Below, in pieces: positions 6,099 to 46,022 of a DNA stretch of 64,000 nt. Source of the DNA: Dyadobacter sp. Leaf189 (GTDB lineage Bacteria; Bacteroidota; Bacteroidia; Cytophagales; Spirosomataceae); assembly GCF_001424405.1 (NCBI RefSeq), contig NZ_LMPS01000001.1, forward strand, positions 1,795,999 through 1,859,998. The letters are read 5' to 3'. A program made the position numbers and the translations under genes. The notes beneath the pieces are model-generated. The model did not search any database, was not told the DNA's origin, and saw nothing but the letters and a program-made list of their open reading frames with translations. Positions within the stretch are counted from its first letter, which is position 1. Each line of letters starts with the position of its first letter.

Positions 6099-6809
6099 AT
6101 GAAAAATTACCCTCAGGCCGCGCGCATTCTCGTGGCCATTGACTGCATCATTTTCGGTTTCGACGGAAAAGACATCAAGCTGCTGCTTATTAAAAGAAAT
6201 TTTGAACCGGAAAAAGGAAAATGGTCCCTGATGGGCGGGTTTGTCAATCACGACGAGGACTTATCAGAAGGTGCAGCGCGCATTCTCTATAACCTGACCG
6301 GACTTAAAAACATCTATGTGGAGCAGCTGGAAACTTTCGGGAAAGCAAGTCGCGACCCGGGTGAACGAACGGTTTCAGTTGTTTTTTTCGCATTGATCAA
6401 GATCGATGATCATGATTCGGAAGCAGTAAAAAGCCACAATGCATCCTGGATTGTGCTGGAAAATCGCCCTAAGCTGATCTTTGACCACGAACAAATGGTA
6501 GTCCGCGCGATTGAACACCTCAAATACAAAGCGGCATTGCACCCGATCGGCTTCGAGCTGTTGCCCGAGCGTTTTACTATTCCGCAGCTGCAAAAGCTTT
6601 ACGAAGCGATCTACAACATCCCCATTGACCGCCGGAATTTCAGTCGCAAGCTGCTGTCAACCGGACTGCTGATCGACACGGGCGACAAAAACAACAACAG
6701 CGCTACAAAAAAAGCAACCCTATACAAGCTCGACACGGACAAGTACAGAGCCAAATTCCATTCGTTCTGGAACTTCATGCCTGATTCGATGAAAGAGGTT
6801 GAGGTTTGA
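6099..6809 (+). CDS. araR: NUDIX-domain transcriptional regulator of arabinose use (AraR-like)
   Basis: 236 residues. The N-terminal part is a NUDIX-type fold (ILVAIDCIIFGFDGKDIKLL, then GKWSLMGGFVNHDED) and the C-terminal part is an NrtR-type winged helix (LLPERFTIPQLQKLYEAIYN, then DRRNFSRKLLSTGLLID). The NUDIX box keeps its first Gly, first Glu, Arg and last Gly, but the catalytic RE..EE residues are replaced (RILYNLTGL), so hydrolase activity is unlikely and the domain probably senses a sugar. Proteins of this architecture are known in Bacteroides as AraR, a repressor responsive to L-arabinose. The position directly before araBAD supports the same role here. The gene is followed by a hairpin and a separate araB promoter region. 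Confidence 0.85.
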   Translation: MKNYPQAARILVAIDCIIFGFDGKDIKLLLIKRNFEPEKGKWSLMGGFVNHDEDLSEGAARILYNLTGLKNIYVEQLETFGKASRDPGERTVSVVFFALIKIDDHDSEAVKSHNASWIVLENRPKLIFDHEQMVVRAIEHLKYKAALHPIGFELLPERFTIPQLQKLYEAIYNIPIDRRNFSRKLLSTGLLIDTGDKNNNSATKKATLYKLDTDKYRAKFHSFWNFMPDSMKEVEV

Positions 6810-6817
6810 AGAATAAG

Positions 6818-6875
6818 TGAATGAGTGAATGAGTGAAATACGATCCGATTATTCATTCTATCATTCACTCATTCA
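6818..6875. repeat. Inverted repeat after araR
   Basis: A 15-bp perfect inverted repeat, 6818-6832 (TGAATGAGTGAATGA) and 6861-6875 (TCATTCACTCATTCA), with a 28-bp loop. The left arm is itself built of repeated GAATGAGT units. It lies just after the araR stop codon and could act as a weak terminator or RNA-stability hairpin, although no clear run of T follows. Confidence 0.5.
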
Positions 6876-6910
6876 AAATTGAAATTGTGTCAATCATACA
6901 CCAGAAACAA

Positions 6911-6946
6911 ATTTATTTATATTTGTTAGCTGATAAATTAAATAAT
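6911..6946 (+). promoter_or_regulatory. Candidate araBAD promoter -7 box inside an imperfect palindrome (possible AraR operator)
   Basis: TATATTTG at 6918-6925 matches the Bacteroidetes -7 consensus TAnnTTTG, about 60 bp before the araB start. I see no good -33 TTTG at the right distance. The box sits in an AT-rich imperfect dyad spanning 6911-6946, with matching ATT, TTTA and TT segments on either side of a GTTAGCTGA centre. A repressor bound here would block the promoter. The AraR link is an inference from position. Confidence 0.35.
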
Positions 6947-6983
6947 ACTGCCTTATTGCTCTGAATTATCCTAAACCGTTTAT

Positions 6984-8651
6984 ATGAAACAAGATTATGT
7001 AATTGGAATTGACTTTGGGACCGACTCGGTGCGCGCGCTGGTAGTGGATGCGCATTCAGGGAAGCAGGCGGGCACTGCAGTGCATGAATATGTCCGCTGG
7101 AAACAAGGTAAGTATTGCGATCCTGCGCGTTCGCAGTTCAGGCAGCACCCGCTGGACTACCTGGAAAGTATGGAAAGTGCGGTACTAGCCGCACTGGACC
7201 AGGCGCCGGCTGAGGCCAGGGCTTCGGTCCGTGGTATTTCGATCGACACTACCGGCTCCACGCCGGTTGCGGTGGATCAAACAGGAACGCCGCTCGCTAT
7301 GCTCCCGGGCATGGAAGATAATCCCAATGGGATGTTTATTCTCTGGAAAGACCATACCGCGAATGCAGAAGCAGATGAAATTAACCGGCTGGCGCGCCGC
7401 TGGACTGAGGATTATACCAGGTATGTTGGCGGCATTTATTCTTCCGAATGGTTTTGGGCCAAAATCCTGCATACGCTCAGGGCCGATCAGCAGGTGCGGG
7501 ATGAAGCGTTTTCGTGGGTGGAACATTGTGACTGGATTTCTGCGGAACTCACCGGAGTCACTGATCCGCTCCGCCTGAAAAGGTCCCGGTGCGCGGCCGG
7601 ACATAAAGCATTGTGGCACCAGGATTTTGACGGCCTGCCGCCTAATGCATTTCTCAAAGAACTTGATCCGCTGCTCGACGGACTTCGTGACCGGCTGTTT
7701 GACTCTACTGAAACTTCGGAAAAACCGATGGGTACCATTTCGGAAAAATGGGCACAGCGTTTCGGTATCCCTGCGGATACGATCATCGGCGTGGGTGCAT
7801 TTGACGCGCACATGGGTGCAGTGGGTGCATTGATCGGGCCCTATTCGCTGTGCAAAGTAATAGGTACCTCTACCTGCGATATGCTCATTGCGCCCAGTGA
7901 AGAAGCGGGGCATTTGCTTATCAAAGGTATTTGCGGGCAGGTCGATGGGTCCATTATCCCGGGTATGCTGGGAATGGAAGCCGGGCAGTCTGCATTCGGT
8001 GACATTTATGCCTGGTTTGCAAAGCTGATCGTGGAACCCGTACGTGCATTGATCGGAGAAGATGCCGCGCGGGAATTGTCCAGAAACCTGATTCCGCACC
8101 TTTCAAAGCTTGCTGCGGAGTTACCTGTCACAGAAACGGACATTGTGGCGATCGACTGGCTCAATGGTCGCCGTACTCCTGATGCGAAACATACCCTCAA
8201 AGGCGGGATACTCGGCCTTAATCTTGCGAGCGACAGCGCGCGGGTTTTCAAGGCGCTGGTAGAAGCTACTGCATTTGGTTCCAAGAGCATCGTGGAGCGG
8301 TTCAGAAATGAAGGTGTTCCGATAAACCAGGTTATTGCAATCGGTGGAGTGGCTAAAAAGTCTGCATTTGTCATGCAAACACTCGCCGATGTGCTGAATA
8401 TGCCGATCAAAGTAGCCGCTTCCGAGCAGGCTTGTGCGTTGGGGGCAGCTATGTTCGCGGCGGTTGCATCGGGCATTTATCCAACATTACAGGAGGCGCA
8501 ACAGGCCATGAACTCGGGCTTTGACGCAGTTTACCATCCGAGAGAAAATGAATCGCAGGTGTATCAGGTACTTTATGACAAATACCTCGCAGCCGGCGCA
8601 TTCATCGAGAACGAATTCCTGATACAAAAAGAACCTGCGATCGCGGGATAA
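6984..8651 (+). CDS. araB: Ribulokinase
   Basis: 555 residues, the usual length for AraB. It phosphorylates L-ribulose to L-ribulose-5-phosphate in the cytoplasm. It is a FGGY-family kinase: the N-terminal phosphate-binding motif is YVIGIDFGTDSVRALVVD, the first lobe includes DTTGSTPVAVD and MLPGMEDNPNGMFILWKDHT, and the C-terminal ATPase lobe has GAFDAHMGAVGA, VIGTSTCDML and IAIGGVAKKSAFVMQTLADV. It is followed 35 bp later by araA and then araD on the same strand, which settles the sugar specificity. It is probably controlled by AraR encoded just upstream. Confidence 0.96.
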   Translation: MKQDYVIGIDFGTDSVRALVVDAHSGKQAGTAVHEYVRWKQGKYCDPARSQFRQHPLDYLESMESAVLAALDQAPAEARASVRGISIDTTGSTPVAVDQTGTPLAMLPGMEDNPNGMFILWKDHTANAEADEINRLARRWTEDYTRYVGGIYSSEWFWAKILHTLRADQQVRDEAFSWVEHCDWISAELTGVTDPLRLKRSRCAAGHKALWHQDFDGLPPNAFLKELDPLLDGLRDRLFDSTETSEKPMGTISEKWAQRFGIPADTIIGVGAFDAHMGAVGALIGPYSLCKVIGTSTCDMLIAPSEEAGHLLIKGICGQVDGSIIPGMLGMEAGQSAFGDIYAWFAKLIVEPVRALIGEDAARELSRNLIPHLSKLAAELPVTETDIVAIDWLNGRRTPDAKHTLKGGILGLNLASDSARVFKALVEATAFGSKSIVERFRNEGVPINQVIAIGGVAKKSAFVMQTLADVLNMPIKVAASEQACALGAAMFAAVASGIYPTLQEAQQAMNSGFDAVYHPRENESQVYQVLYDKYLAAGAFIENEFLIQKEPAIAG

Positions 8652-8686
8652 TCAAATAAACTTACAGCCATTTTACCACCCACTTA

Positions 8687-10177
8687 ATGCTTGATTTAAA
8701 ACAATTCGAAATCTGGTTTGTCACGGGAAGCCAGCATTTGTATGGAGAAGATACGCTCCGGCAGGTCGACGACCATTCCTGTATCCTGGCCAAATCTTTT
8801 GATGAAGCCGCTGCGATCCCCGTGAGAGTAGTTTTCAAACCGGTAGTGAAGTCTCCAGAGGAGATTTACCAGATTATGCAGGAAGCAAACAGCACAGCAG
8901 CCTGCATTGGGCTGGTGGCCTGGATGCACACTTTTTCACCTGCCAAAATGTGGATAAGGGGATTACAGATCCTTCAAAAACCGCTGCTGCATTTACATAC
9001 ACAGTACAACCAGGACATACCCTGGGCGAGTATCGACATGGATTTCATGAACCTCAACCAATCGGCCCATGGTGACCGCGAGTTCGGTTTTATGATGACG
9101 CGTATGCGGCTGAACAGGAAAGTGGTCGTTGGTCACTGGCAGCAGCCGGAGGTTTTGGACAACATCGGCGACTGGGCGCGCGTAGCTGCTGCGTGGCACG
9201 ATATGCAAGGGGCCAGGTTTGTCCGCTTCGGAGATAATATGCGCCAGGTTGCCGTAACAGACGGTGACAAGGTAGCTGCGGAAATGAAATTCGGATTTTC
9301 TGTCAATACGTATGCAGTAGGCGACCTGGTAAAGGTGATCAACGGGGTCGAAGACCAGGAAGTGAGCCGGCTCGTTGCTGAATACGAAGATACTTACGAG
9401 CTGGCCGATGCATTAAAATTGAATGCCGGCCGCCACGGTTCGCTGCGCGATGCAGCCCGCATTGAGCTTGGGTTACATTACTTTTTGAAAGATGGAAATT
9501 TCAAGGGATACACCAATACTTTCGAAGATCTGCATGGCATGAAGCAGCTGCCGGGGATCGGCTCGCAGCGGATGATGGCGGCGGGTTTTGGTTACGCAGG
9601 CGAGGGTGACTGGAAAACGGCAGCAATGGTGCGCGCGCTGAAAGTAATGGCAAGTGGGCTCAGCGGTGGTAACTCCTTTATGGAAGATTATACTTACCAC
9701 TTTGATCCGGCCAATCAGCTGGTATTAGGCTCTCACATGCTCGAAATATGCCCCAGCATTGCAGCAGGTAAGGTATCCTGTGAAATTCATGCATTGGGGA
9801 TAGGAGGGAAGGAGGATCCTGTCCGGCTCGTTTTCAATGCGCCTGCCGGGCCGGCGCTCAACGTGTCACTAATCGATCTGGGTAACCGGTTCCGGATCCT
9901 GGTCAATGAAGTAGAGGCGGTGGAAGTCAGCGAAGCGCTGCCCAGGTTGCCTGTAGCGCGGGCATTGTGGAAGCCGCAGCCTGATATGCAAACGGGCTGT
10001 GCCGCGTGGATTTATGCTGGCGGCGCACACCACACGGTTTACAGCCAGAACCTGACTGTCAGCCACATTGAAACCTTCGCGGAAATGGCTGGCGTTGAGC
10101 TGGTGGTCATTGATCAAAACACAAACCTGCGGCAGCTCAAAAACGAGTTGCGGTGGAGTGAAGCCAGCTATAAATAA
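8687..10177 (+). CDS. araA: L-arabinose isomerase
   Basis: 496 residues, full length for AraA. It converts L-arabinose to L-ribulose in the cytoplasm using a divalent metal such as Mn2+. The N-terminus ([21 protein letters not shown]) is the family hallmark. Expected metal and catalytic residues are visible in [20 protein letters not shown], the MEDYTYHFD segment and GGAHHTVYS near the C-terminus. It is the middle gene of araBAD, 6 bp before araD, so the two are almost certainly translated from one message. Confidence 0.97.
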
Positions 10178-10183
10178 TTAATT

Positions 10184-10885
10184 ATGTCAAAATACACCTA
10201 TCTCAAAGAGCAGGTTTACGAGGCCAATATGGAGATCCCCAAAGAGGAACTGGCGATTGTGACCTTCGGAAATGTAAGTGGTATCGACAGGGCGGAAGGC
10301 GTCGTGGCGATCAAGCCCAGCGGGGTACCTTATCATCGGCTGAAAGTGGAGGATATCGTAATTGTAGACCTGGATAACGTAGTGATCGAAGGTAGTATGC
10401 GTCCCTCTTCGGATACCAGGACTCATACTTTGCTGTACAAAAGTTTTCCGGAAATAGGCGGGGTTTGTCACACGCATTCCACTTACGCGGTTGCGTGGGC
10501 GCAGGCTATGAAGCCCATTCCCAACCTGGGTACCACCCACGCCGACCACCTGACCGCCGCAGTTCCGGTTACAGAAGTAATGTCCGACGAGATGATCCAG
10601 GGGAATTACGAACTGGAAACGGGCAACCAGATACTTGATCTTTTTGCCCGGAACGGGCTCAGTTATGAAGAGGTGGAAATGGTTCTAGTTGCTTGCCACG
10701 GGCCATTTACGTGGGGTAAGGACCCTGCCAAGGCAGTATACAATTCAGTAGTACTGGAAGAAATTGCGCGAATGGCATACCTTACTTTGCAGATCAACCC
10801 GCTGGCGGGTACAATCAAGCAGAGCCTCATTGACAAGCATTATTTCAGAAAGCACGGAAAAAATGCCTATTACGGGCAGGAGTAG
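10184..10885 (+). CDS. araD: L-ribulose-5-phosphate 4-epimerase
   Basis: 233 residues, a class II aldolase-fold enzyme that epimerises L-ribulose-5-phosphate to D-xylulose-5-phosphate for the pentose phosphate pathway. Visible motifs are TFGNVSGIDR, IKPSGVPY, the zinc ligands in CHTHSTYAVAWA, and the later VACHGPFTWGKD. The length and motifs match E. coli AraD. It ends the araBAD operon and its stop codon abuts the stop of a small convergent gene. Confidence 0.96.
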   Translation: MSKYTYLKEQVYEANMEIPKEELAIVTFGNVSGIDRAEGVVAIKPSGVPYHRLKVEDIVIVDLDNVVIEGSMRPSSDTRTHTLLYKSFPEIGGVCHTHSTYAVAWAQAMKPIPNLGTTHADHLTAAVPVTEVMSDEMIQGNYELETGNQILDLFARNGLSYEEVEMVLVACHGPFTWGKDPAKAVYNSVVLEEIARMAYLTLQINPLAGTIKQSLIDKHYFRKHGKNAYYGQE

Positions 10886-11035
10886 TTAGTTTTTCTTCTC
10901 TATTTTCTTGCTGGCGATCTTGCGCATTTGTTGTAACGCTTCCTGCCGGGACATTCCCTTCTGGTTGGATTTTGCTTCTTCAATGGCTTCTTTTGAAAAC
11001 CGGCCTTTGAGAATATTATAGAGTGCTAAAAACAT
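10886..11035 (-). CDS. Small basic protein of unknown function
   Basis: A 49-residue open frame from ATG 11035 to a stop that abuts the araD stop. The protein starts MFLALYNILKGRFSKEAIEE, continues with a Lys- and Gln-rich helical segment (SRQEALQQMRKIASKK) and ends KIEKKN. A short hydrophobic start followed by an amphipathic, charged tail looks like a genuine small protein rather than a chance frame. Codon choice is like that of the neighbours. I do not recognise the family. Confidence 0.5.
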   Translation of the reverse strand: MFLALYNILKGRFSKEAIEEAKSNQKGMSRQEALQQMRKIASKKIEKKN

Positions 11036-11101
11036 TTGGAGTCTTGCTAACGAGCTTAATAAGTGATAACCAAACTTACCAAAGAATAAGCTATAAAAAA
11101 A

Positions 11102-11128
11102 CTGCCGGATCGTTTTTGGATCCGGCAG
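11102..11128 (-). terminator. Rho-independent terminator for the minus-strand gene at 11182
   Basis: A perfect 10-bp stem (CTGCCGGATC paired with GATCCGGCAG) and a 7-nt loop. On the minus strand it is followed by TTTTTTATAG, a good U-tract, so it serves genes read from the right. Confidence 0.8.
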
Positions 11129-11181
11129 CCTAATATCTTGCGGTTCAAGACTTTATTCTAAACGTTGAGTGTAATTTCTTC

Positions 11182-11370
11182 TTAGCCAGCAACTTCCTTA
11201 CGCAACTTGCTTCCTGGATTGAATTCATCCTTGATCCAGCGAACAAAATTGTGGGAGTTGGTTTTGTAAATTTCCATTGACAATGGTTTGATGCCGCTGA
11301 ACTCAACCTCTTTTACGTATTCAGCGTGCAACTTCAAAATCTCAGACAGGGTCTTGCTATCGGTTTTCAT
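11182..11370 (-). CDS. Small hypothetical protein
   Basis: About 62 residues from ATG 11370; an upstream in-frame start at 11406 would add 12 residues. The product begins MKTDSKTLSEILKLHAEY and ends NPGSKLRKEVAG. It is charged, without signal peptide or membrane segment, and ends just before a strong terminator in its own direction, which supports a real single-gene unit. I do not recognise a domain. Confidence 0.55.
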   Translation of the reverse strand: MKTDSKTLSEILKLHAEYVKEVEFSGIKPLSMEIYKTNSHNFVRWIKDEFNPGSKLRKEVAG

Positions 11371-11704
11371 TGAAAATGTTTGGATGTTAAGGTTTACAAT
11401 AAACACTGAGATCCATTGCTACAAACGTGTTCCCGAACATTGTTTATTTCTTAATATATTTAAATAATTATATTGTAGATCATATAAATACCATACAAAT
11501 AGCGTTACCGGTCGATAGCAGAATTTAAAGGTAAATGCGCAAATGAGGGGATTGTTACATTTTAGGACAATTTGAGTAAATGCGGGAATCAGAAAATTCC
11601 GCGGGAGACGCAACCTGATGTATGGTATTGAGTGCGTCTGCTTGTCCTGAAAATGATGGAAGAATAGCAAAGAGCTTGCCAGGATACCCGGCCACCTTAC
11701 TAAA
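11371..11704. other. Non-coding stretch between small gene and receiver operon
   Basis: About 330 bp with no convincing gene. The part near 11440-11500 is very AT-rich and probably carries the promoter of the small minus-strand gene at 11182. The part near 11580-11700 is the downstream end of the signalling operon; I see no strong terminator in it. Confidence 0.4.
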
Positions 11705-12094
11705 TCAGATTGCCAGCTTTTTTCTGAGGAAGGTTACTTCAAGCGGCTTGGGAAGAAGATCAATGATGTACGGGCTGGCTTTTACTTTTTCAATGTCGCG
11801 GGTATCTATCGTAGACGAAAGCATGAAGATCCGGATCTTGGAACGGAGGTGGTCAGGCAGGTTTTCAAATTCGTCGATGAATTCAAACCCATTCATATCA
11901 GGCATTTGCAGATCGAGCAGGATAATCGTGTCGGGAATTGTGCTGCCCTCGTGCAGGAGAAATTTGAGCGCTTCGCGAGCTGAATTGAAAGTTTTGACCG
12001 AATCGGTGATACCGCTTTTGATCAGCAGCTTTTCGTAAATGAAAAGATCAAAGGCGCTGTCGTCTATTAAGAAGAAGTTGAGAAGTGACTTCAT
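11705..12094 (-). CDS. Single-domain response regulator
   Basis: 129 residues forming only a receiver domain. The acidic pair is Asp11-Asp12 (FFLIDDSAFD), the phosphorylation site is Asp61 (ILLDLQMPDMNG), the switch residue lies in MLSST, and the conserved Lys is about 116 (LLPKPLEV). There is no output domain, so it would act by protein contact or as a phosphate shuttle. It is the last gene of the operon that starts at 18329, 9 bp after the receiver-kinase hybrid. Its partner is likely that hybrid or the 7TM kinase. Confidence 0.92.
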   Translation of the reverse strand: MKSLLNFFLIDDSAFDLFIYEKLLIKSGITDSVKTFNSAREALKFLLHEGSTIPDTIILLDLQMPDMNGFEFIDEFENLPDHLRSKIRIFMLSSTIDTRDIEKVKASPYIIDLLPKPLEVTFLRKKLAI

Positions 12095-12103
12095 ACCGCC
12101 TGG

Positions 12104-13195
12104 TTATTTTTTGATGGAGGGAATGTTGATTTCAAAAACGCTGCCCTGACCAATCTGCGAGCTCACGCTGATGCTGCCCCCCAGTTTCGATATTGCTTCG
12201 TGAACGATGTACAAACCGATGCCTGAACCACTGTTGGTAGCCCCGGCCCGATAGAACATTTTAAAGATTTTATCCTGATCCGACTCCCTGATCCCCGAAC
12301 CATTATCGGCCACGATGATCGTTGCGTGGGTAGGAGTGGAGCGTACAGTCAGATGTACATAAGGATCCGGCTTCGACTTATCCTGAAACTTGATTGCATT
12401 ATTGATCAGGTTATTGAAAATGATCCGCAGCTTCATTACATCGGACTGGAAAATGCCCGTCTGCTCAATGTCTGTTGTCATTTTCAGGTTACCATATTCA
12501 GGCAGGTACTGAATAGTCGCCTGCACTTCGGTCACCAGTTCTTCAAAACTGATATCGGTTACAACAGGTACCCCTCTCGCATTCTTGTAGTAGTCAATGA
12601 TATTGATAATGAATGTATCGAGCTTCTTCACCGACTGGCGGATCAGTTCCAGGTATTCGTTCTGCGACTTCACATCTTCTTCCAGCAGGGCCAGGTTCAC
12701 AATGCCGAGCACGGACATCAATGGGGCGCGGAGATCGTGGGAGGCGCTGTATACAAACTTGTCAAGCTCCTCATTGGCTTTCTGCAACTCGCTGTTACGC
12801 TGTTTCAGGTCTTCCCGCGTCTTGTAAATATCGTAAGCGCTCGCAATAGCAGTATCTACATACTGGTAATCCCAGGGTTTGTCGATAAAGCGGAACACTT
12901 CTCCCTTGTTGATTGCATCAATCGCCGCGCCGATATCCGTGTGACCGGTGATGAGGATGCGTATCGGTTTCGGGAATTTGGTCCTGATCTTTTCGAAGAA
13001 CTGCACACCCGTCATAATAGGCATGCGCTGATCGGCCAGGATAATGCAAAAATCCCTGTTCTCTAATATTTCCTCCGCCTCTATGACAGACGAGGTTATT
13101 GTAATATCATATTGTTTGCGGAAAGACGCCTTGAACGAATGCAGGTTATGCTCCTCATCGTCGATGTATAGAATGGTAATTGGTTTCTCATTCAT
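12104..13195 (-). CDS. Receiver-histidine kinase hybrid protein
   Basis: 363 residues. The N-terminal receiver has Asp12-Asp13 (LYIDDEEHN), phospho-acceptor Asp55 (ILADQRMPIMTG) and Lys106 (FIDKPWDY). A coiled linker (about 125-145) leads to HisKA with His153 (SASHDLRAPLMSVLG) and an HATPase domain with the N box (IIFNNLINNAIKFQ), G1 (VADNGSGI) and G2 (GSGIGLYIVHEA). It has no transmembrane segment, so it is a cytoplasmic phosphorelay kinase switched by its own receiver. Its start overlaps the end of the 7TM kinase gene by 4 bp (ATGA), which implies coupled translation. The receiver is clearly related to the one encoded at 18608. Confidence 0.94.
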   Translation of the reverse strand: MNEKPITILYIDDEEHNLHSFKASFRKQYDITITSSVIEAEEILENRDFCIILADQRMPIMTGVQFFEKIRTKFPKPIRILITGHTDIGAAIDAINKGEVFRFIDKPWDYQYVDTAIASAYDIYKTREDLKQRNSELQKANEELDKFVYSASHDLRAPLMSVLGIVNLALLEEDVKSQNEYLELIRQSVKKLDTFIINIIDYYKNARGVPVVTDISFEELVTEVQATIQYLPEYGNLKMTTDIEQTGIFQSDVMKLRIIFNNLINNAIKFQDKSKPDPYVHLTVRSTPTHATIIVADNGSGIRESDQDKIFKMFYRAGATNSGSGIGLYIVHEAISKLGGSISVSSQIGQGSVFEINIPSIKK

Positions 13196-15360
13196 TGAAA
13201 ATCTGGGATAGGGCGTATTTTTCTTTTTACAGGAAGTGTGATCAAAAACTCTGTTCCTTCACCTACTTCCGTATTAACATGAATTGTACCGCTGTGAACT
13301 TCTATAATTTTAAATACAATCGAAAGTCCGAGTCCTGTTCCGTCCCCTACCTGTTTGGTTGTGAAAAATGGCTCAAAAATCTTGGCACGTACTTCCGGCG
13401 GCATTCCCGGTCCATTGTCGCGCATTGAAATGGAAATATGGTCAGGGTCGCTCAGCCAGGTCTTAACCCAGATCGTCGGTACCTTTCCTTCTTGTTTGTC
13501 TTTGAGCAATGCATAGATCGAATTGGTCAGGATATTCATGAAAACCTGGTTCAGCTTGCCTGCGTAGCATTCGATACTCGGAATGTTACCCAGCTCTTTC
13601 ACCAGCTTGATGGCGTTCCCCATCTGGTAATTGAGAATGATCAGTGTGGATTCAATACCTTCATTCACATTGACCAGGTTCAGGTCGAGCTCATCCACGC
13701 GGGAGAAGATCTTTAAACCCTTTACAATTTCCACAGTTCTGTGTGCGCCATCTTCCATACCTTTTAAAAGCGTATCCAGCTCCGTTTTAATGTAGTCAAG
13801 ATCCAGTTCTGCTTTCAACTCCTCAATTTCGTTTATTTTAGTATGTAAATGCTCAATGGAGTCAATGTTCTGAATATTTTTATAAGAATCCAATATTTCA
13901 AGTACATCATCGATATCTCTCCGCAGCGGCTTGATATTGGAACTCACAAAATTGATCGGATTATTGATCTCGTGGGCGATACCCGCAGTAAGCTGACCGA
14001 GCGACGCCATTTTTTCGGCATCAATAAGTTGTGTCTGCGCATCTTTAAGGCGGGTTAATGCGAGGTTAAGCTCCTGGTTGGCAGTTTGCAATTCCGCAGT
14101 CCGCTCATCAACGCTCCTTTCCAGCAATGCATTTTGCTCTGTAATGATCTTTTCATTTTCGAGCGAAACGCGCAGTGCTTCTGCCTGGGATTCTTCCCGT
14201 TCTCTTTTGAATATATTGATTTTATCCGCCAATGCAATAGAAAGCAACACTACTTCCGCAATGGAACCGAACTGCATGGTATAGGTTGTAAAAATGTTAT
14301 ACGGCAGTATGTTCAGGTTGCGGAGGATCAGAAGGAAAAGCCCGAGTAAAAAGATTGACCAGCCGATAAGGAAAAGCTTGGCCGGTCGGTAATTTTCTCT
14401 CGAAAGCTTGATACCGATCACCAGGCAGCTAAGTGTACCGACCGCACCTGAAATATCCACCAGCCTGAAACTGAGAAGTTCAAAGCCGGCTACATTGAGC
14501 AGAATGGAGGACGAATACAGCGCAACAATAATGTAAACAATAAAGATTGCGCGCGGCCATTTCTCTTTGAGCTGCAGGAAGTTTTTAACAAAGAAAATAG
14601 CAGATATACCCGCTATTCCCGAAAAGTAAATAGTTGCTACCGAATTAAAAACGGGTGCATTCGGCCAGAGGTACTTGAATGCATAACCTGAAAGTGAGGT
14701 TTGTGCCAGCCCGATCGAAAGCACGTAAAGTACGTAGAAAAGGTAGCTTCGGTCTCTCGTTGAAAAGTAGATGAATATGTTGTAAAGCACCATGACAACG
14801 ATGATCCCGCAAAAAATCCCGTTGATTGTTTCACCCAGCTGTGCCGTTTCAAAGAAGTTGCCCTGATCGCGCAGGATCAGCGGCAGGATCACCTGGTTGG
14901 ACCCTTTGACTTTCAGATAGTAGGAGTGTTCCTGATTGGGCCCGAGCGCCAGGTCGAAAACAAGGTTTTGGTGCTTGACACGCCGTTTGTTGAAATGGTC
15001 TGCGTCGTTGTAAATTTCTGTGCGGATCTTATCCCCGATGATCTCATACATTTCGCAGGAATGGATCCCCGGATGCGCGAGTTCAAGGTAAAGCATATTC
15101 CTCGCCGAAGTATTGCGGATAGAAAACCTGATCCAGAAGCTGGATTTGCTCAGCCCGATGTTGGGAACTTCATCTTTGCTTTTTACAAAGCCATTGCTAT
15201 TGCGTACTTCGTGTAAGCTGAGTGTGCCTGCGGTATCTTCATAAATTTCAAGGTACTTTCCCAGAATCAGGGAGCCGTTTTTGTAGTCTACCGTCTCAGC
15301 GGAGAGCTTTCCGGCAGTAAATGTCAGTAAAAATAAAACCAGGATTCTGAGCACCTTCAT
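13192..15360 (-). CDS. 7TMR-DISM sensor histidine kinase
   Basis: 722 residues. After a signal peptide (about 1-21) comes a periplasmic 7TMR-DISMED2-type sandwich (about 30-165, with [10 protein letters not shown] and LELAHPG), seven membrane helices (about 180-380), a coiled coil (385-450), HisKA with His463 ([18 protein letters not shown]) and an HATPase domain with [12 protein letters not shown] and [14 protein letters not shown]. This receptor class usually binds small or carbohydrate-like ligands at the extracellular side. In the operon it follows the acyltransferase gene by 4 bp and overlaps the hybrid kinase gene. That places sensing directly after two enzyme genes, so it may detect their product; this is an inference. 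Confidence 0.94.
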
Positions 15361-15363
15361 ACC

Positions 15364-16059
15364 TCAAAACTTCATGTCCAATTCGTAATGTAAAGCTATT
15401 TCACCTTTCGGGCCCTGCTCAATTGCAAATTGAACGGGATCATTTCTCAGGCGCCTGATGTGTTTAAGTTCTTCTTCATGGGCTAGAGGCAGCTGTTCGA
15501 GGTCAGTCACGACGATCGCCGTCGCGATCAATCCTTCTTTGGGATAGTAAAAAGTACCATTGTTCCCCAACGTTCTGATCACCTCAAAACCCAGCCGCAG
15601 GCACTGGCGCAAGGTTGGCGGGGAGCATAATGCAAGCAGCTTTTTGATCCCGAGCTCCGTGGTAACAGCGATGCCCACCCGGCCCATAAAAATACTTCCA
15701 ATACCGAAACCTGCAACTTCCTTACTATTGAAAGCGCCGCAGAACTCCGCTATTTTTTCGTGTTTCAGACCGTCAACGTACCCGTAAATGCGGTCATCTT
15801 TTTTCGCGATCGCATCTTCCATTGGCAACTTGCGCGTTTCCTGCCGAACCTGGATCCTGGCGCCTCCATAAATCTTCCCTCCATCTTCGGATTCAACGAT
15901 AATGACATACGTATTCTCATCATTCAGCCAGTCGTGGTTTGCCGAGGTTACCTGTTTTACACCATAAGCTTCGAGCACTTTCCGGTGTTCGTCAATGTAC
16001 CTGAGACAAGTCTCCACGTCGGTTGTGGATCTGAATGCTCTGATTTTAGCGACCATCAA
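15364..16059 (-). CDS. GNAT-fold acyltransferase, possibly N-acyl amino acid/autoinducer synthase-like
   Basis: 231 residues. The middle and C-terminal part look like a GNAT or LuxI/FeeM-type acyltransferase: a strand with GGARIQVRQET, then AEFCGAFNSKEVAGFGIGSI, a helix MGRVGIAVTTELGIKKLLAL, and the TLRQCLRLGFEVI segment that resembles the Gly-Phe end of motif B. I cannot place the acyl donor or acceptor. It overlaps the ThiF-nitroreductase gene by 4 bp and is followed 4 bp later by the 7TM kinase, so enzyme and sensor are co-translated. An alternative is a plain acetyltransferase. The family assignment is made by eye from fold motifs. Confidence 0.6.
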   Translation of the reverse strand: MMVAKIRAFRSTTDVETCLRYIDEHRKVLEAYGVKQVTSANHDWLNDENTYVIIVESEDGGKIYGGARIQVRQETRKLPMEDAIAKKDDRIYGYVDGLKHEKIAEFCGAFNSKEVAGFGIGSIFMGRVGIAVTTELGIKKLLALCSPPTLRQCLRLGFEVIRTLGNNGTFYYPKEGLIATAIVVTDLEQLPLAHEEELKHIRRLRNDPVQFAIEQGPKGEIALHYELDMKF

Positions 16060-18329
16060 ATTTCGTCATTAACTATAAACAATACTTCATCTAATGGCAG
16101 GCGTTTTGTTTTAGTAGCTATCGTTGAAGACTTATGAATTCTTAAAAGAGCCACGGGACTATACCCGGCAGGTAAGCGTACAATGCGCTCAAACCTGGCT
16201 TTCAAAACGTTGAGTTTAACAATCTCATTTTCATTTAATCCTTCACCGGAGCGAAGGCGGCTGAACAGCGAAACCGGCGTAAGGAGCGGCTGCGCAGACA
16301 AACCCAGCTGCACGGCGCGGAGCCACATCTCCTGCGCGATCATACCCGAATAGAAATGCGGGTGCCCCTCTTCCGGCATTGAAATGATCGCAATTCCCGA
16401 GGAAGCACTTACCGCAGCAGCAATGCGTTCGGCTACAATGTTCCCTCCGTCAATGGTTTTCAAAATGTCAGCAATCTTTCTGTCGCCTAGCATTGCAAGG
16501 GCGGCACCGTGATGCGGATCCACAGCCAGCTGCAACGGATGAATGCTGGTACTTTCGCCGGAACCCGATTGGGTGTTTCGTTCAAAAACATCCTTGTAAC
16601 CCTCTTCATGCAGGATATTGATCAGCTCGCATGCACCGGCAATTTGTGCGAGCTCGCTAATATGTGATGAATTTTGAATAAAGTCAATGTGGGCATTTAC
16701 TGTTTCTGCTCCTGATTCGGTCAGGTACCGAACATCTTCTGCGCTCAGCTCGTGAGGTAAGCCCGCGTTCCGGCTGGTAGACCTTTGTGGGATCATCTCT
16801 GCAAGAATAGCGGCAACTGAGGTACTTTCGGGCTGGTCGCTCTGTGAAGTAAAATCAATAGCGGCGACGAGCTCAGGGATTTCTGCCACCGGAAAAAACA
16901 GCGGAGCGATACTGTAGCCCAGCGCATTGCTTTTAAGCCTGATATTGGTAAAAGCTGCGCCTAATGCAAGGTAGGCAGCTGTATTTTTATAGTTTACAAA
17001 TGCATGCGACCGGTGTGGATCGTGGAACAAATGCAGTCTTCCATTGCGGTAAAGCCACTTCCAGGGCTGGTCATTTCCCCAGGAAGGCGCCTGAGTGCCG
17101 GCTTCAACAATTTGCTTGATTTCTTCCCGGTCGGGCTGCGTCAATGCTTCCAGTCGGGGCAATGCAACTGCGGCTCCCAATGCATGTGCCAGGTTGAATT
17201 TTGCGTTCGGATTAGTATAAACGGATTCAGCCGGCAATGCAGCCTGGTTGGAGATGATCTGTTCCAGGTCGACGTAAAATCTGCCTGACTCTGTAAACTG
17301 GCCGAGCAAAATCCGCCTTGTCACATCTGTTACCACGCCGCCTCCAAGTGTGACAGCGCTGGCAAGCTGCGGCCAGGTACTGATAGACTGTCCCATTTCC
17401 AACAGGGAAGCGCGCCCGCGCCGTGAGGTGTTTTTTACATCGATAATGCGCATAACAAAACCCAGACGGTCGGCCGGTGGGATATTTTCCAATCTTTCCG
17501 GTGGGATATCGCTGAGCATTCCGTGTAGAATAAGCCGCCCGGGTTCGAGGTCAAACCGTTCCACATCGAGCATTCCGCGGTCGCTGGTTTCCATTATCAC
17601 CGGAATTTGAAGTGCTCTGGCAGCCTGGCGACACTTGATTTTTACTTCCAGATCGTCGCATTCATCGATCAGCAGATCAAGGTTTCCGTCCTTTGTTAAA
17701 AAATGATGAAGATTTTCCGAGGTAATTCCTTCGGTATAGCATTCCACGTCCAGAAAAGGATCTATTTCCGCTATTTCCCGAGCCGTGATAATGCTTTTAT
17801 TTAATCCTATATTATGGATGCCTGTTCTGATCCTATTCAGGTTACTGAGTTCAAGTGTGTCAAAATCAGCCAGTTTGAGTTTCCCGAAGAGGCGCTCGGT
17901 CGCAAGTGTCAGCGCCACTGCGTGGCCAACCGATAGCCCGATTATGCCTATTTTTCGTTGGGATAGGGAAGCTTGTTCCTGCGCGGTGATCTTGTGCTGG
18001 TTGCGGGTGGTGCGGAGCGCTATGAAATCGGCTTCATTAACAATGTGCAGGAGCCGGTTAGACCAGGGATAGTAGAGCCAGCAACCTTCCAGGTCCGGAT
18101 TGCTACCTGCTGTGCGTTCACTGTATCTTTCGTCGAGTTGTTCACCCGTGAGTCTCGATCTTGGATTTTGAACTTTGATAAGTTCCTTCGCCTGAGATGC
18201 ATAGAGATCGAGTACAACCGCATTTTTGTACTCGTTTCTGAACGAACGGTAACTTAGTTCATCAGTGTATTGCTCTTTCGGGATAAACAGCGGTTTATGG
18301 TTTGTGTTTGTTGTAGACTCAGAGTGCAT
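16056..18329 (-). CDS. ThiF/E1-like adenylyltransferase fused to a nitroreductase domain (Rv1355c-like)
   Basis: 757 residues with two enzyme domains. The first (about 120-345) is ThiF/MoeB/E1-like: nucleotide loop RKIGIIGLSVGHAVA, DFDTLELSNLNRIRTG (Asp155, Asp157, Asn163, Arg166) and DLLIDECDDLEVKIKCR. I see no obvious zinc CxxC pairs or transfer cysteine. The second (about 396-720) is nitroreductase-like: FMN-binding GTQAPSWGNDQPWKWLY, and near the end HPHFYSGMIAQEMWLRAVQL and GLSAQP. The same fusion is known in mycobacteria as Rv1355c, function unknown. The first 110 residues are an extra region. It heads a five-gene operon with an acyltransferase and three signalling proteins. I infer a biosynthetic role in which a carboxylate is adenylated and a flavin step modifies the product. 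Confidence 0.85.
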   Translation of the reverse strand: MHSESTTNTNHKPLFIPKEQYTDELSYRSFRNEYKNAVVLDLYASQAKELIKVQNPRSRLTGEQLDERYSERTAGSNPDLEGCWLYYPWSNRLLHIVNEADFIALRTTRNQHKITAQEQASLSQRKIGIIGLSVGHAVALTLATERLFGKLKLADFDTLELSNLNRIRTGIHNIGLNKSIITAREIAEIDPFLDVECYTEGITSENLHHFLTKDGNLDLLIDECDDLEVKIKCRQAARALQIPVIMETSDRGMLDVERFDLEPGRLILHGMLSDIPPERLENIPPADRLGFVMRIIDVKNTSRRGRASLLEMGQSISTWPQLASAVTLGGGVVTDVTRRILLGQFTESGRFYVDLEQIISNQAALPAESVYTNPNAKFNLAHALGAAVALPRLEALTQPDREEIKQIVEAGTQAPSWGNDQPWKWLYRNGRLHLFHDPHRSHAFVNYKNTAAYLALGAAFTNIRLKSNALGYSIAPLFFPVAEIPELVAAIDFTSQSDQPESTSVAAILAEMIPQRSTSRNAGLPHELSAEDVRYLTESGAETVNAHIDFIQNSSHISELAQIAGACELINILHEEGYKDVFERNTQSGSGESTSIHPLQLAVDPHHGAALAMLGDRKIADILKTIDGGNIVAERIAAAVSASSGIAIISMPEEGHPHFYSGMIAQEMWLRAVQLGLSAQPLLTPVSLFSRLRSGEGLNENEIVKLNVLKARFERIVRLPAGYSPVALLRIHKSSTIATKTKRLPLDEVLFIVNDEI

Positions 18330-18607
18330 GTCGGGTAAGTTGGAAGGGCTGCGTTTATTGCCTAAACACCTACAAATTGCTGAATTTATTTTTGTAAAAC
18401 TATCATCGGATCATTGGCTCTCAAAATATTTGGGTCAAAACAGTGGAAAGGTTACCCATAAATAAGATGTCGTAACAATGCAGGCATCAACTCTTGGGAC
18501 CTCGTCATCACTTTTCGCAATATAGAATTATCTTTACATTGTGAGAAAAGTAGGTTCGATATTTGACTACTGAATTATACCACCTCTAAGTCTGTTTTTT
18601 TAAAGTA
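18330..18607. promoter_or_regulatory. Divergent promoter region between E1-nitroreductase operon and receiver gene
   Basis: 278 bp between two divergent start codons. It must hold the promoters of both the five-gene operon and the receiver gene. On the plus strand GATATTTG at 18558-18565 is one base away from the TAnnTTTG box and lies about 45 bp before the receiver gene. I found no convincing operator. Confidence 0.4.
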
Positions 18608-19075
18608 ATGGAAACCAAAGGGAAAATTAGTGTGCTGTATGTGGATGATGAGATCAATAACCTCAATTCATTTAAAGCTGCCTTCAGAAGAGATTTCAAT
18701 ATCTTGATTGCAACCTCGGGAAGGGAAGGACTGGAGTTATTGAAACACAATGTAGTACACGTGATCATCACCGATCAGCGGATGCCGGAAATGACAGGGG
18801 TGGATTTTCTGATTGAAGTATTGAAGGATTACTCAGATCCCGTGCGGATTTTATTAACCGGCTATACGGACATTACGGCCGTGATCGACGCTGTTAACAA
18901 AGGGCATATTTACTACTATCTCAACAAGCCCTGGGATGAGCAACAGTTGCGGATCATTATAAAAAACGCCTACGAAATTTATCACCTCCGGGAAGAAAAC
19001 AAGGAATTGATAGAGAAGTTACTGGACGTAAATGGCCAGTTAGAATTTCTTTTGAGACAAAATCTTCTTTCCTAG
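18608..19075 (+). CDS. Response regulator receiver protein, paralogue of the hybrid kinase receiver
   Basis: 155 residues: a receiver domain (LYVDDEINNLNSFKAAF; phospho-acceptor Asp in IITDQRMPEMTG; Lys in LNKPWDEQQ) and a short helical tail (YEIYHLREENKELIEKLLDV). It lacks an output domain. It shares with the hybrid at 12104-13195 the pattern DDE..NL.SFKA.FR, DQRMP.MTGV.F, RIL.TG.TDI and KPWD, so one probably arose from the other by duplication. It is divergent from the operon across a 278-bp shared promoter region. It may compete with or relay to the hybrid kinase. Confidence 0.9.
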   Translation: METKGKISVLYVDDEINNLNSFKAAFRRDFNILIATSGREGLELLKHNVVHVIITDQRMPEMTGVDFLIEVLKDYSDPVRILLTGYTDITAVIDAVNKGHIYYYLNKPWDEQQLRIIIKNAYEIYHLREENKELIEKLLDVNGQLEFLLRQNLLS

Positions 19076-45650: not shown

Positions 45651-46019
45651 GGGGGTGACTGGAATTGACAGCGGGTTGGAAGTCTGTGTGTAAGCATGTC
45701 GGGAGTTGAGATTACCTCCCGTAAATAATGGTCTCAAACAATAACTGGCGAATCTACTTACGCCATGGCTGCTTAATCCGGAGGATTAACCAAATGCCAT
45801 CATCTCTCCACCCCACGTGCTGCCGGGTGGATCCAGAGGTGTCGAACCGCAGCGCTGGTTGGTATATTGATGCGTAAAACCAACGAGACCCTAGTATCTA
45901 AGGCTTAGACGCGGGTCCGCCGCGAACCTTGTCTGGCCCGACAATCTAATCGAGGATAAGCATGTAGAAGGCGCAGGGTTTCCCTGTTCTGGACGAGGGT
46001 TCGACTCCCTCCATCTCCA
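45651..46019 (+). ncRNA. ssrA: Transfer-messenger RNA (tmRNA)
   Basis: The gene begins GGGGGTGACTGGAATTGACA and ends with a T-arm and acceptor GGACGAGGGTTCGACTCCCT then CCATCTCCA, both hallmarks of tmRNA. GGGGGTG at the 5' end pairs with CATCTCC at the 3' end with two G-U pairs; CCA is not encoded. The tag frame is GGC at 45747 to TAA at 45774-45776 and reads GESTYAMAA, close to the GENNYALAA-type tags of Bacteroidota. With SmpB it rescues stalled ribosomes. A terminator follows immediately. Confidence 0.96.
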
Positions 46020-46022
46020 CTG

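What the first reader, a model, noticed from the sequence alone, without database searches (positions are those of the whole stretch)
11705..19075. ThiF-nitroreductase fusion plus acyltransferase in one operon with a three-protein phosphorelay
Seen directly: five minus-strand genes with 4-bp overlaps or gaps below 10 bp (E1-nitroreductase, GNAT-fold acyltransferase, 7TMR-DISM kinase, receiver-kinase hybrid, single receiver), and a divergent receiver gene. Known: the fusion occurs in other bacteria as Rv1355c-like proteins without assigned function; 7TMR-DISM receptors sense extracellular ligands. Inferred: the two enzymes make an acylated or adenylated small molecule that the membrane kinase detects, a quorum-sensing-like loop.
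Basis: partly seen in the sequence, partly recalled or inferred. Interest (0 to 1): 0.82.

Follow-up and report, generated by a model that had tools for sequence, protein, structure and literature searches.

The report
Swappable chemical-signal and receptor cassette
This bacterium (genus Dyadobacter, judged by its nearest relatives) carries a gene cluster that likely makes a small fatty amino-acid signal and the membrane receptor that would read it; across 30 genomes of the genus the signal-making genes and the receptor's sensing half vary together while the receptor's signalling half follows the species, the pattern expected of private chemical languages.

Summary
In detail: five tightly packed minus-strand genes and a divergent receiver. 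The fusion now has a function in print: its relative TrzS (Rv1355c) cyclises and desaturates N-acyl-tryptophan to an acyl-oxazolone (PMC12856293), a role its authors call unresolved. The "GNAT" is predicted to fold like the N-acyl amino acid synthase FeeM and AHL synthases. The likely product is therefore an acyl-oxazolone or its open form, made beside a 7TMR-DISM kinase.

Three comparative results support a signal-receptor pair. (1) In 80 of 80 related loci from named genomes, and 11 of 11 other positives in a 296-genome phylum sample, the kinase's sensor lies close to the synthase. (2) In 30 Dyadobacter genomes, synthase, oxidase domain and sensor vary together, while kinase domain and receivers follow gyrB; the switch falls between the 7TM and HisKA domains. 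(3) The tailoring enzyme is replaced by ThiF alone, a SAM or ICMT-type methyltransferase, or a FAD oxidase, and in Sphingobacterium the sensor tracks it. Against: across distant genera the synthase follows the kinase domain more than the sensor (sensor near saturation); the relatives' oxazolones stay mostly in cells; the cluster encodes no HPt or output domain. No experiment was possible.

The parts
18608..19075 (+). Divergent single-receiver protein (155 aa, NosR/RpfG-like receiver, C-terminus LLRQNLLS)
   Evidence: receiver motif at residue 53; C-terminal RQxLLS/LIS in 89 of 89 orthologues; opposite strand to the synthase in 78 of 78 loci of the 80-locus set where found
16056..18329 (-). TrzS-like fusion: ThiF-type (E1-like) cyclase domain (about residues 1-375) + FMN nitroreductase-superfamily oxidase domain (about 376-757); predicted oxazolone-forming enzyme
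   Evidence: NF005901 696.8 bits vs cut-off 476; ThiF columns G128, D155, D157, N163, R166, K178, D218, D225 conserved in at least 95% of 60 fusions, window included
15364..16056 (-). Predicted N-acyl amino acid synthase (FeeM/LuxI-like fold), the constant synthase of the locus
   Evidence: AlphaFold2 model pLDDT 91.1; top PDB matches FeeM 2g0b and AHL synthases; no sequence family
13192..15360 (-). 7TMR-DISM histidine kinase (722 aa), predicted receptor
   Evidence: sensor model
14872..15261 (-). Periplasmic 7TMR-DISMED2 domain of the kinase (residues 34-163), RetS-sensor fold
14221..14829 (-). 7TM domain of the kinase (residues 178-380); covaries most strongly with the synthase in Dyadobacter
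14101..14190 (-). Approximate switch point (residues 391-420) between the sensor half that varies with the synthase and the species-bound kinase half
   Evidence: 60-residue scan: rho with GNAT 0.72 (331-390), 0.56 (361-420), 0.23 (391-450); rho with receivers 0.21, 0.52, 0.79
12104..13195 (-). Receiver-HisKA-HATPase hybrid kinase (363 aa)
   Evidence: receiver motif at 52, H-box motif at 150
11705..12094 (-). Single-receiver protein (129 aa), last gene; not found in many other lineages
   Evidence: found by script in 48 of 80 loci, one of them (L109) a distant opposite-strand hit that I discount, so 47 in the operon

Best explanation
This is a six-gene cluster, recurrent in Bacteroidota, that likely works as a synthase-receptor signalling cassette: the acyltransferase is predicted to join a fatty acyl group to an amino acid, the TrzS-like fusion would cyclise and desaturate it to an acyl-oxazolone, and the 7TMR-DISM kinase next door would detect that product or one derived from it. 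Shown here: the gene order; the FeeM/AHL-synthase-like fold of a confident predicted model; conserved ThiF adenylation-site columns; the conserved linkage of synthase and receptor; in 30 Dyadobacter genomes, oxidase domain, synthase and sensor vary together while kinase domain and receivers follow the species; in Sphingobacterium the sensor varies with the tailoring enzyme. Inferred: substrate and product (from TrzAS/TyzACB/OxzAB biochemistry), ligand binding in or near the 7TM bundle, phosphotransfer from the kinase to the three receivers, release to other cells, and that sensor types act as pherotypes so that each type answers mainly its own signal. The output is unknown; no DNA-binding domain was found in the cluster.
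For: Chemistry: NF005901 (Rv1355c family) match far above cut-off; TrzA + TrzS (Rv1355c) make N-acyl tryptazolone (PMC12856293: abstract and sections 4, 7, 8 read); TyzA's model is closest to FeeM and BjaI (PMC10404671, section 5), and the window synthase has the same two at the top of Foldseek; VIA gives FeeM the highest Z, 17.4 over 173 residues, tied by its rule with a generic N-acyltransferase at 16.6 over 145. Linkage: sensor tblastn hit close to the synthase in 80 of 80 loci; in 78 of 78 with a long enough kinase gene it is same-strand and downstream, gap at most 2,495 bp; 11 of 11 positives other than the window in a 296-genome phylum sample. Covariation: synthase vs 7TM rho 0.79, vs gyrB 0.17, vs kinase domain 0.19; kinase domain and receivers vs gyrB 0.69-0.81. 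Partial Mantel synthase~7TM given gyrB and kinase r=0.78, 0 of 2000 permutations; the synthase alignment tolerates the sensor tree (delta lnL 29, AU p 0.085) but rejects the kinase tree (delta 621) and gyrB tree (delta 937); the sensor rejects its own kinase's tree (delta 1210). Enzyme swap: of 80 loci 53 fusion, 5 ThiF only, 11 SAM methyltransferase, 5 ICMT-type, 4 FAD oxidase, 2 none (Pfam on 7 representatives, the others classed by length and N-terminus). Sphingobacterium, 10 loci: same-enzyme excess identity 18.7 points in 7TM (1 of 5000 label permutations), -0.5 in kinase.
Against: Across 60 loci outside Dyadobacter the partial correlation synthase~7TM is -0.03, and the synthase follows the kinase domain (rho 0.57) more than the 7TM (0.27); 7TM identity is low there (median 36%), so saturation may explain it, but this is not shown. 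In raw Sphingobacterium matrices (14 loci) the 7TM follows the kinase (0.71) more than the synthase (0.60). Oxidase domain, synthase and sensor are contiguous, so exchange of one tract explains shared history without proving ligand recognition; only the 7TM-over-DISMED2 result (partial r 0.68 vs -0.01) and Sphingobacterium argue for more. Trees inside the module are not identical: the sensor alignment rejects the synthase tree (delta 159) and the synthase alignment rejects the oxidase tree (delta 50, p 0.014). In the TrzAS paper oxazolones were more abundant in cells and acyl-tryptophan in the supernatant, so the ligand may be the open acyl amino acid. No HPt, exporter or output gene was recognised in the cluster. 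Two loci have no extra enzyme (L082, L098), and L134 has ThiF + synthase without receptor.
Confidence: 0.64

Rival explanations
1. Regulated secondary metabolite: the acyl-oxazolone is an antimicrobial or defensive product, and the kinase reports an unrelated cue (for example envelope damage or a carbohydrate) that turns its production on; sensor and enzymes move together only because they are adjacent.
For: Biosynthetic clusters often carry their own regulators (recalled); N-acyl tyrosine derivatives of Stieleria are said to be antimicrobial in PMC12856293; the periplasmic domain resembles the RetS sensor and another DISM protein, SagS, is reported to respond to glucose-6-phosphate (PMC8544897, title and abstract start in a listing); the second ThiF cluster L245 has enzymes but no kinase among the ORFs read.
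Against: Sensor identity tracks the tailoring enzyme at similar species distance in Sphingobacterium; the 7TM, not the nearer periplasmic domain, covaries with the synthase in Dyadobacter; the synthase-receptor pair persists when the tailoring enzyme is absent or replaced.
Confidence: 0.18
2. Membrane-lipid feedback: the product is a cell-bound lipid and the kinase monitors it inside the same cell's membrane, a homeostatic loop and not cell-cell communication.
For: Tyrazolones and tryptazolones were found mainly in cells; the part that covaries with the synthase is the 7TM bundle; structural neighbours of the 7TM include WLS and a lipid-bound TMEM87A entry (helical-bundle matches, weak).
Against: Homeostasis gives no obvious reason for diverged types spread across the species tree or for replacing the enzyme by an unrelated one; acyl amino acid intermediates of the relatives accumulate in the supernatant.
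Confidence: 0.13
3. Coincidental linkage and ordinary fast evolution: sensor domains and specialised enzymes simply diverge faster, and the operon is kept together for unrelated reasons.
For: Sensor domains often evolve faster than kinase domains (recalled); the distant set shows no synthase-sensor excess.
Against: The last receiver diverges nearly as much as the synthase (median identity 70.5 vs 66.7) yet follows gyrB (rho 0.73 vs 0.17); pairs such as G012/G034 (gyrB 97.7, synthase 59.6, 7TM 50.5) and G034/G010 (gyrB 90.9, synthase 87.4, 7TM 75.2) are reversed; linkage in 80 of 80 loci.
Confidence: 0.05

Closest known systems
TrzAS of mycobacteria and Rhodococcus (Rv1356c-Rv1355c; PMC12856293)
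   Same: Acyltransferase gene beside a ThiF-FMN oxidase fusion of the same NCBIfam family; predicted acyl-oxazolone product
   Different: No receptor kinase mentioned in the paper ('kinase' occurs 0 times); neighbours are predicted c-di-GMP turnover genes; physiological role stated to be unresolved; substrate and chain length here unknown
TyzACB of M. tuberculosis and OxzAB of P. rubra (PMC10404671)
   Same: N-acyl amino acid synthase + ThiF cyclase + FMN oxidase making tyrazolones
   Different: TyzB and TyzC are separate proteins; no linked sensor described in the sections read (5, 11)
FeeM N-acyl amino acid synthase and LuxI-type AHL synthases (BjaI, LasI, TofI)
   Same: Predicted fold
   Different: No Pfam match for the window protein above cut-off; 10-20% identity in the structural alignments; acyl acceptor unknown
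ComQXPA and agr pherotype loci of Gram-positive bacteria (recalled; papers naming ComQXPA and pherotypes seen in a listing only)
   Same: Signal-making gene and the receptor's sensor part diversify as a block while the kinase end and regulator stay conserved
   Different: Peptide signals there; here a predicted acyl amino acid-derived small molecule and a 7TMR-DISM receptor in Gram-negative bacteria
LuxM-LuxN and CqsA-CqsS (recalled)
   Same: Small lipophilic autoinducer synthase paired with a multi-pass membrane histidine kinase
   Different: Different enzyme and receptor families; no swapping of tailoring enzymes known to me
RetS and other 7TMR-DISM receptors
   Same: DISMED2 + 7TM architecture; the RetS periplasmic domain is the closest solved fold
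   Different: No linked signal-synthesis gene known to me in RetS/LadS/SagS systems (recalled)

Membership tests
TrzS / Rv1355c family (NCBIfam NF005901) | Full-length match above the curated cut-off | tested here: met
   696.8 bits vs 476, profile 3-720 of 722
TrzS / Rv1355c family (NCBIfam NF005901) | ThiF adenylation-site residues kept | tested here: met
   G128, G131, G135, D155, D157, N163, N165, R166, K178, D218, C224, D225 conserved in at least 95% of 60 fusions, window included; which of these is the paper's D217 was not aligned; their roles are recalled from ThiF/MoeB
TrzS / Rv1355c family (NCBIfam NF005901) | Acyltransferase gene adjacent | tested here: met
   4-bp overlap; FeeM-like predicted fold
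TrzS / Rv1355c family (NCBIfam NF005901) | Makes an acyl-oxazolone | not testable with these tools
   Needs enzyme assay
N-acyl amino acid synthases (FeeM type) | FeeM fold | tested here: met
N-acyl amino acid synthases (FeeM type) | Recognised by a sequence family model or a solved relative's sequence | tested here: not met
   No Pfam or NCBIfam family above cut-off; no credible PDB sequence relative by phmmer or profile. So it is said to work like FeeM, not filed in that family
LuxI-type AHL synthases | Match to a Pfam autoinducer synthase model | tested here: not met
   The only Pfam hit up to E 1 is a sub-threshold, unrelated one (MlaE)
7TMR-DISM receptor kinases | PF07696 + PF07695 + kinase | tested here: met
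   102.8 and 180.6 bits, HATPase_c 89.5 bits; HisKA 25.0 bits is just below its cut-off of 26.9
His-Asp-His-Asp phosphorelay | Phosphoacceptor His and receiver Asp motifs present | tested here: met
   H-box motifs starting at 459 (kinase) and 150 (hybrid); receiver motifs starting at 52, 59, 53
His-Asp-His-Asp phosphorelay | HPt domain in the cluster | tested here: not met
   None among Pfam hits; one encoded elsewhere is not excluded
Quorum-sensing (autoinducer) system | Dedicated synthase linked to a cognate receptor gene | tested here: met
   Linkage only; cognate function is inferred
Quorum-sensing (autoinducer) system | Synthase and sensor coevolve, independent of species history | tested here: inconclusive
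   Strong in Dyadobacter, suggestive in Sphingobacterium (but); not seen in 60 distant loci
Quorum-sensing (autoinducer) system | Extracellular signal, density-dependent response | not testable with these tools
   Needs culture experiments

The most novel reading that the evidence does not exclude
Bacteroidota possess a widespread, undescribed family of chemical-communication loci built from a FeeM/LuxI-fold synthase, an interchangeable capping enzyme (oxazolone former, ThiF cyclase, SAM or ICMT-type methyltransferase, or FAD oxidase) and a 7TMR-DISM receptor kinase; species change 'language' by swapping the enzyme-synthase-sensor block while keeping their own kinase and receivers. This would give acyl-oxazolones their first physiological role (signals) and 7TMR-DISM receptors their first dedicated autoinducers.
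Probability: 0.48. Interest if true: 0.93.

Novelty: new variant of a known kind. Interest (0 to 1): 0.83.

Why it matters
What acyl-oxazolones are for is stated as a major unresolved question by the group that found tryptazolones (PMC12856293, discussion). Here a genetically linked candidate receptor, with sensor types that vary with the synthase, makes that question directly testable in soil bacteria. It would also add a signal class and a receptor class to bacterial communication in Bacteroidota, and a natural set of parts in which signal chemistry and sensor are exchanged.

Tried and rejected
Sequence-only identification of the acyltransferase failed; structure was needed. The idea that the PRK14852-type family (NF011425) would show a natural fusion of synthase and ThiF-oxidase was searched in two genomes (plus the tool's 14 control genomes) and gave only hits below the cut-off; not pursued. 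A generalisation test of synthase-7TM covariation outside Dyadobacter was negative (60 loci, partial r -0.03); kept as evidence against, with saturation as a possible but unproven reason. The idea that the conserved C-terminus of the divergent receiver (RQxLLS/LIS) is the ThiF substrate was rejected because the tail is also kept in loci without ThiF. Promoter and terminator scans were near shuffled expectation (17 vs mean 12.7 and 11 vs 8.4) and are not used. The VIA and Foldseek matches of the 7TM domain to GPCRs, WLS and TMEM87A are within what a helical bundle can give and are not used as evidence of a ligand. Literature: searches on 7TMR-DISM or N-acyl amino acids with quorum sensing and on oxazolones showed no title or abstract start about a receptor kinase with oxazolone genes; one search listed 15 of 18 papers, the others all their hits; only open-licence PMC papers are covered, and de Rond et al. 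2021 (OxzAB) is known to me only through the two JBC papers.

Rows dropped before counts: in the gyrB analysis 30 of the 48 genus genomes (own included) were used because of the 30-locus limit; I chose them to span high to low synthase identity (operons of 35 genomes including the window were extracted, gyrB was sought in 30). Some phylum-sample genomes may likewise be among the named ones (G221 is L078). In one search Dyadobacter loci, L140, L124 (same as L078) and loci without a complete kinase or hybrid gene were dropped. In one search, 10 of 14 Sphingobacterium loci were used, near-identical ones dropped. The genome-contig scan found 192 relatives and kept the best 80. In one search at most three candidates per genome were scored and the list is cut at weak hits. 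In one search the RRsolo hit of L109 is discounted. L077 was classed as FAD oxidase by the size of the gap only.
Full report
OBSERVATION. The genes are as described: five minus-strand genes from 18329 down to 11705 with junctions of -4, +3, -4 and +9 bp, and a divergent receiver at 18608-19075. Pfam and NCBIfam assign ThiF + nitroreductase (Rv1355c family, 696.8 bits against a cut-off of 476), DISMED2-7TM-HisKA-HATPase, receiver-HisKA-HATPase, and two single receivers. The 231-aa acyltransferase has no sequence family. Nearest named relatives are Dyadobacter (Bacteroidota), 98% for D. crusticola.

WHAT THE ENZYMES ARE. An AlphaFold2 model of the acyltransferase from 34 sequences is confident (pLDDT 91.1, pTM 0.88). 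Its best Foldseek match is FeeM, an N-acyl amino acid synthase, followed by AHL synthases (BjaI, MesI, TofI, RpaI, LasI) and then other acyltransferases. The fusion belongs to the family of Rv1355c, shown in a paper of December 2025 to be TrzS: with the acyltransferase TrzA it turns L-tryptophan and acyl-CoA into N-acyl tryptazolone, by ATP-dependent cyclisation and then O2-dependent desaturation (PMC12856293; abstract, sections 4, 7, 8). The sister systems TyzACB and OxzAB make tyrazolones; TyzA's own structural neighbours are FeeM and BjaI (PMC10404671, sections 5 and 11). The window's ThiF domain keeps the nucleotide-site columns found in at least 95% of 60 fusions (roles recalled). I infer that this pair makes an acyl-oxazolone or its open form; the amino acid and chain are unknown. 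The TrzS authors call the physiological role a major unresolved question and note the resemblance to AHLs.

LINKAGE. The synthase is in 47 of 47 other genus members searched, 0 of 13 genomes of other genera of the family and 5 of 38 of other families of the order; in a phylum sample in 12 of 296 genomes, the window's included. Sensor tblastn hits lie close to the synthase in 80 of 80 named-genome loci; in all 78 with a long enough kinase gene it is on the same strand and downstream, gap at most 2,495 bp. The receiver-kinase is found in 77 of 80 (the 3 others end at contig ends), the divergent receiver in 78 of 80 and always on the opposite strand, the last receiver in 47. In that sample the strong matches to the TrzS-type ThiF domain (E below 1e-40) are 12 places in 11 genomes, all synthase-positive, and 11 of the 12 lie at this locus; the twelfth is a second cluster in the window's own genome (L245).

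SWAPPED CHEMISTRY. The gene next to the synthase is not constant: in the 80 loci, 53 fusions, 5 ThiF alone, 11 SAM-dependent methyltransferases, 5 ICMT-type methyltransferases, 4 FAD-linked oxidases and 2 with none (Pfam on 7 representatives). Distant synthases (29-30% identity, L137 and L138) still have a FAD oxidase and a DISM kinase, although the receivers are not found there. The constant parts are the synthase and the receptor. A synthase with exchangeable modifying enzymes and one receptor is what a family of related signals would need (inference).

SYNTHASE AND SENSOR VARY TOGETHER IN DYADOBACTER. In 30 genomes of the genus (own included) with gyrB as species control, median identities are gyrB 92.2, divergent receiver 85.2, receiver-kinase 81.5, kinase domain 73.0, last receiver 70.5, synthase 66.7, ThiF 63.3, 7TM 57.8, DISMED2 44.0, oxidase 39.8. 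Pairwise identities of the receivers and the kinase domain follow gyrB (rho 0.69-0.81); synthase, 7TM and oxidase do not (0.17, 0.15, 0.18) but follow each other (synthase-7TM 0.79, synthase-oxidase 0.65, oxidase-7TM 0.58). ThiF is intermediate (0.54 with gyrB and with the synthase). Partial Mantel synthase~7TM given gyrB and kinase is 0.78 (0 of 2000 permutations, maximum 0.33). Given the DISMED2 domain as well, it is 0.68, whereas synthase~DISMED2 given the 7TM is -0.01, although DISMED2 lies between them on the DNA; simple linkage does not predict this order, though the noisier DISMED2 alignment may contribute. In tree tests (FastTree topologies, LG+G4, AU) the synthase alignment tolerates the sensor tree (delta lnL 29, p 0.085) and rejects the kinase tree by 621 and gyrB by 937; the sensor alignment rejects its own kinase's tree by 1210. 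Trees inside the module are similar, not identical: the sensor alignment rejects the synthase tree (delta 159) and the oxidase tree (83), and the synthase alignment rejects the 7TM-only tree (69) and the oxidase tree (50).

WHERE THE SWITCH IS. A 60-residue scan shows the kinase gene changing allegiance between residues 361-420 and 391-450, after the 7TM domain (ends at 380) and before HisKA (starts at 454). On the other side the change is gradual across ThiF. Average-linkage types of synthase and of 7TM agree: synthase type 1 is always with 7TM type 4 (10 of 10), synthase type 2 always with 7TM type 1 (10 of 10); of the other 10 genomes the one type 3 synthase also has a type 1 sensor, and the rest have sensor types of their own (type 5 synthases split over two). 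Both main types occur in both large gyrB groups (4 and 7 of 11; 4 and 3 of 8). G012 and G034 have 97.7% identical gyrB but 59.6% synthase; G034 and G010 have 90.9% and 87.4%.

SENSOR TRACKS THE ENZYME. In Sphingobacterium the slot holds ThiF or one of two subgroups of SAM methyltransferase (38-42% identical to each other). Among 10 non-redundant loci, with receivers and kinase as distance controls, 7TM identity is 18.7 points higher for loci with the same enzyme (1 of 5000 label permutations), DISMED2 12.7 (5 of 5000), synthase 5.1 (5 of 5000), kinase -0.5, receiver-kinase 1.0. At similar species distance (receiver-kinase 64-76%), methyltransferase-to-ThiF sensors are 31-37% identical (14 pairs), between the two methyltransferase subgroups 45-49% (12 pairs), same enzyme 48, 66 and 68% (3 pairs). 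Labels are partly tied to phylogeny and few, and in the raw matrices of all 14 loci the 7TM follows the kinase (0.71) more than the synthase (0.60), so this is supportive only.

AGAINST. Outside Dyadobacter, over 60 loci, the partial synthase-7TM correlation is -0.03 and the synthase follows the kinase domain (0.57) more than the 7TM (0.27). Oxazolones of the relatives are found mainly in cells while acyl-tryptophan accumulates in the supernatant. No exporter, HPt or output domain was recognised in the cluster. L134 has ThiF and synthase without receptor.

PRIOR ART. The listings (18, 28, 43, 63 and 84 show only part of their hits) gave no title or abstract start joining oxazolone or N-acyl amino acid synthesis to a 7TMR-DISM kinase; subscription papers and preprints are not covered. 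The covariation logic follows that used for LuxI/LuxR (PMC8328516, abstract).

VERDICT. A likely synthase-receptor signalling cassette of a known general kind (autoinducer plus membrane kinase) with parts not seen together before in what I could search, and with pherotype-like block exchange in one genus. Chemistry, release and response are untested.

Noticed in passing
L245 (own genome, G000:C4:310000-324000), 6305-11841, minus strand: Second TrzS-type ThiF-only gene (371 aa) beside a 252-aa ORF that to my eye reads like an acyl-amino-acid/AHL synthase (no Pfam hit), a beta-lactamase-family protein, a SAM methyltransferase and a styrene-monooxygenase-like FAD enzyme; no receptor kinase among the ORFs read. 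Looks like a separate acyl amino acid product cluster.
   Followed up: partly
window 19028-19075 and orthologues: The divergent receiver ends in RQxLLS or RQxLIS in 89 of 89 loci, an unusually fixed C-terminus with no role known to me; kept whatever the tailoring enzyme.
   Followed up: partly
L139 (G032:C479), 8356-9471: The N-terminal part of a 371-aa protein matches this acyltransferase family and its C-terminal part is an Mrr-type restriction endonuclease domain (PF04471).
   Followed up: no
L140 (G013): Synthase found in two pieces in different frames, and the receiver-kinase match lacks the first 62 residues: gene decay or sequencing errors.
   Followed up: no
L134 (G001:C40), 7777-9705: Orphan ThiF + synthase pair with no receptor or receiver nearby, in a genome that also has a synthase next to a ThiF-oxidase fusion on contig C12.
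   Followed up: no
L071 (record titled Azovibrio restrictus MAG): Cluster nearly the same in layout and match values as L072 (uncultured Bacteroides sp.), in a record named as a betaproteobacterium; probably a mis-binned Bacteroidota contig.
   Followed up: no
window 45651-46020: tmRNA gene with tag GESTYAMAA.
   Followed up: no
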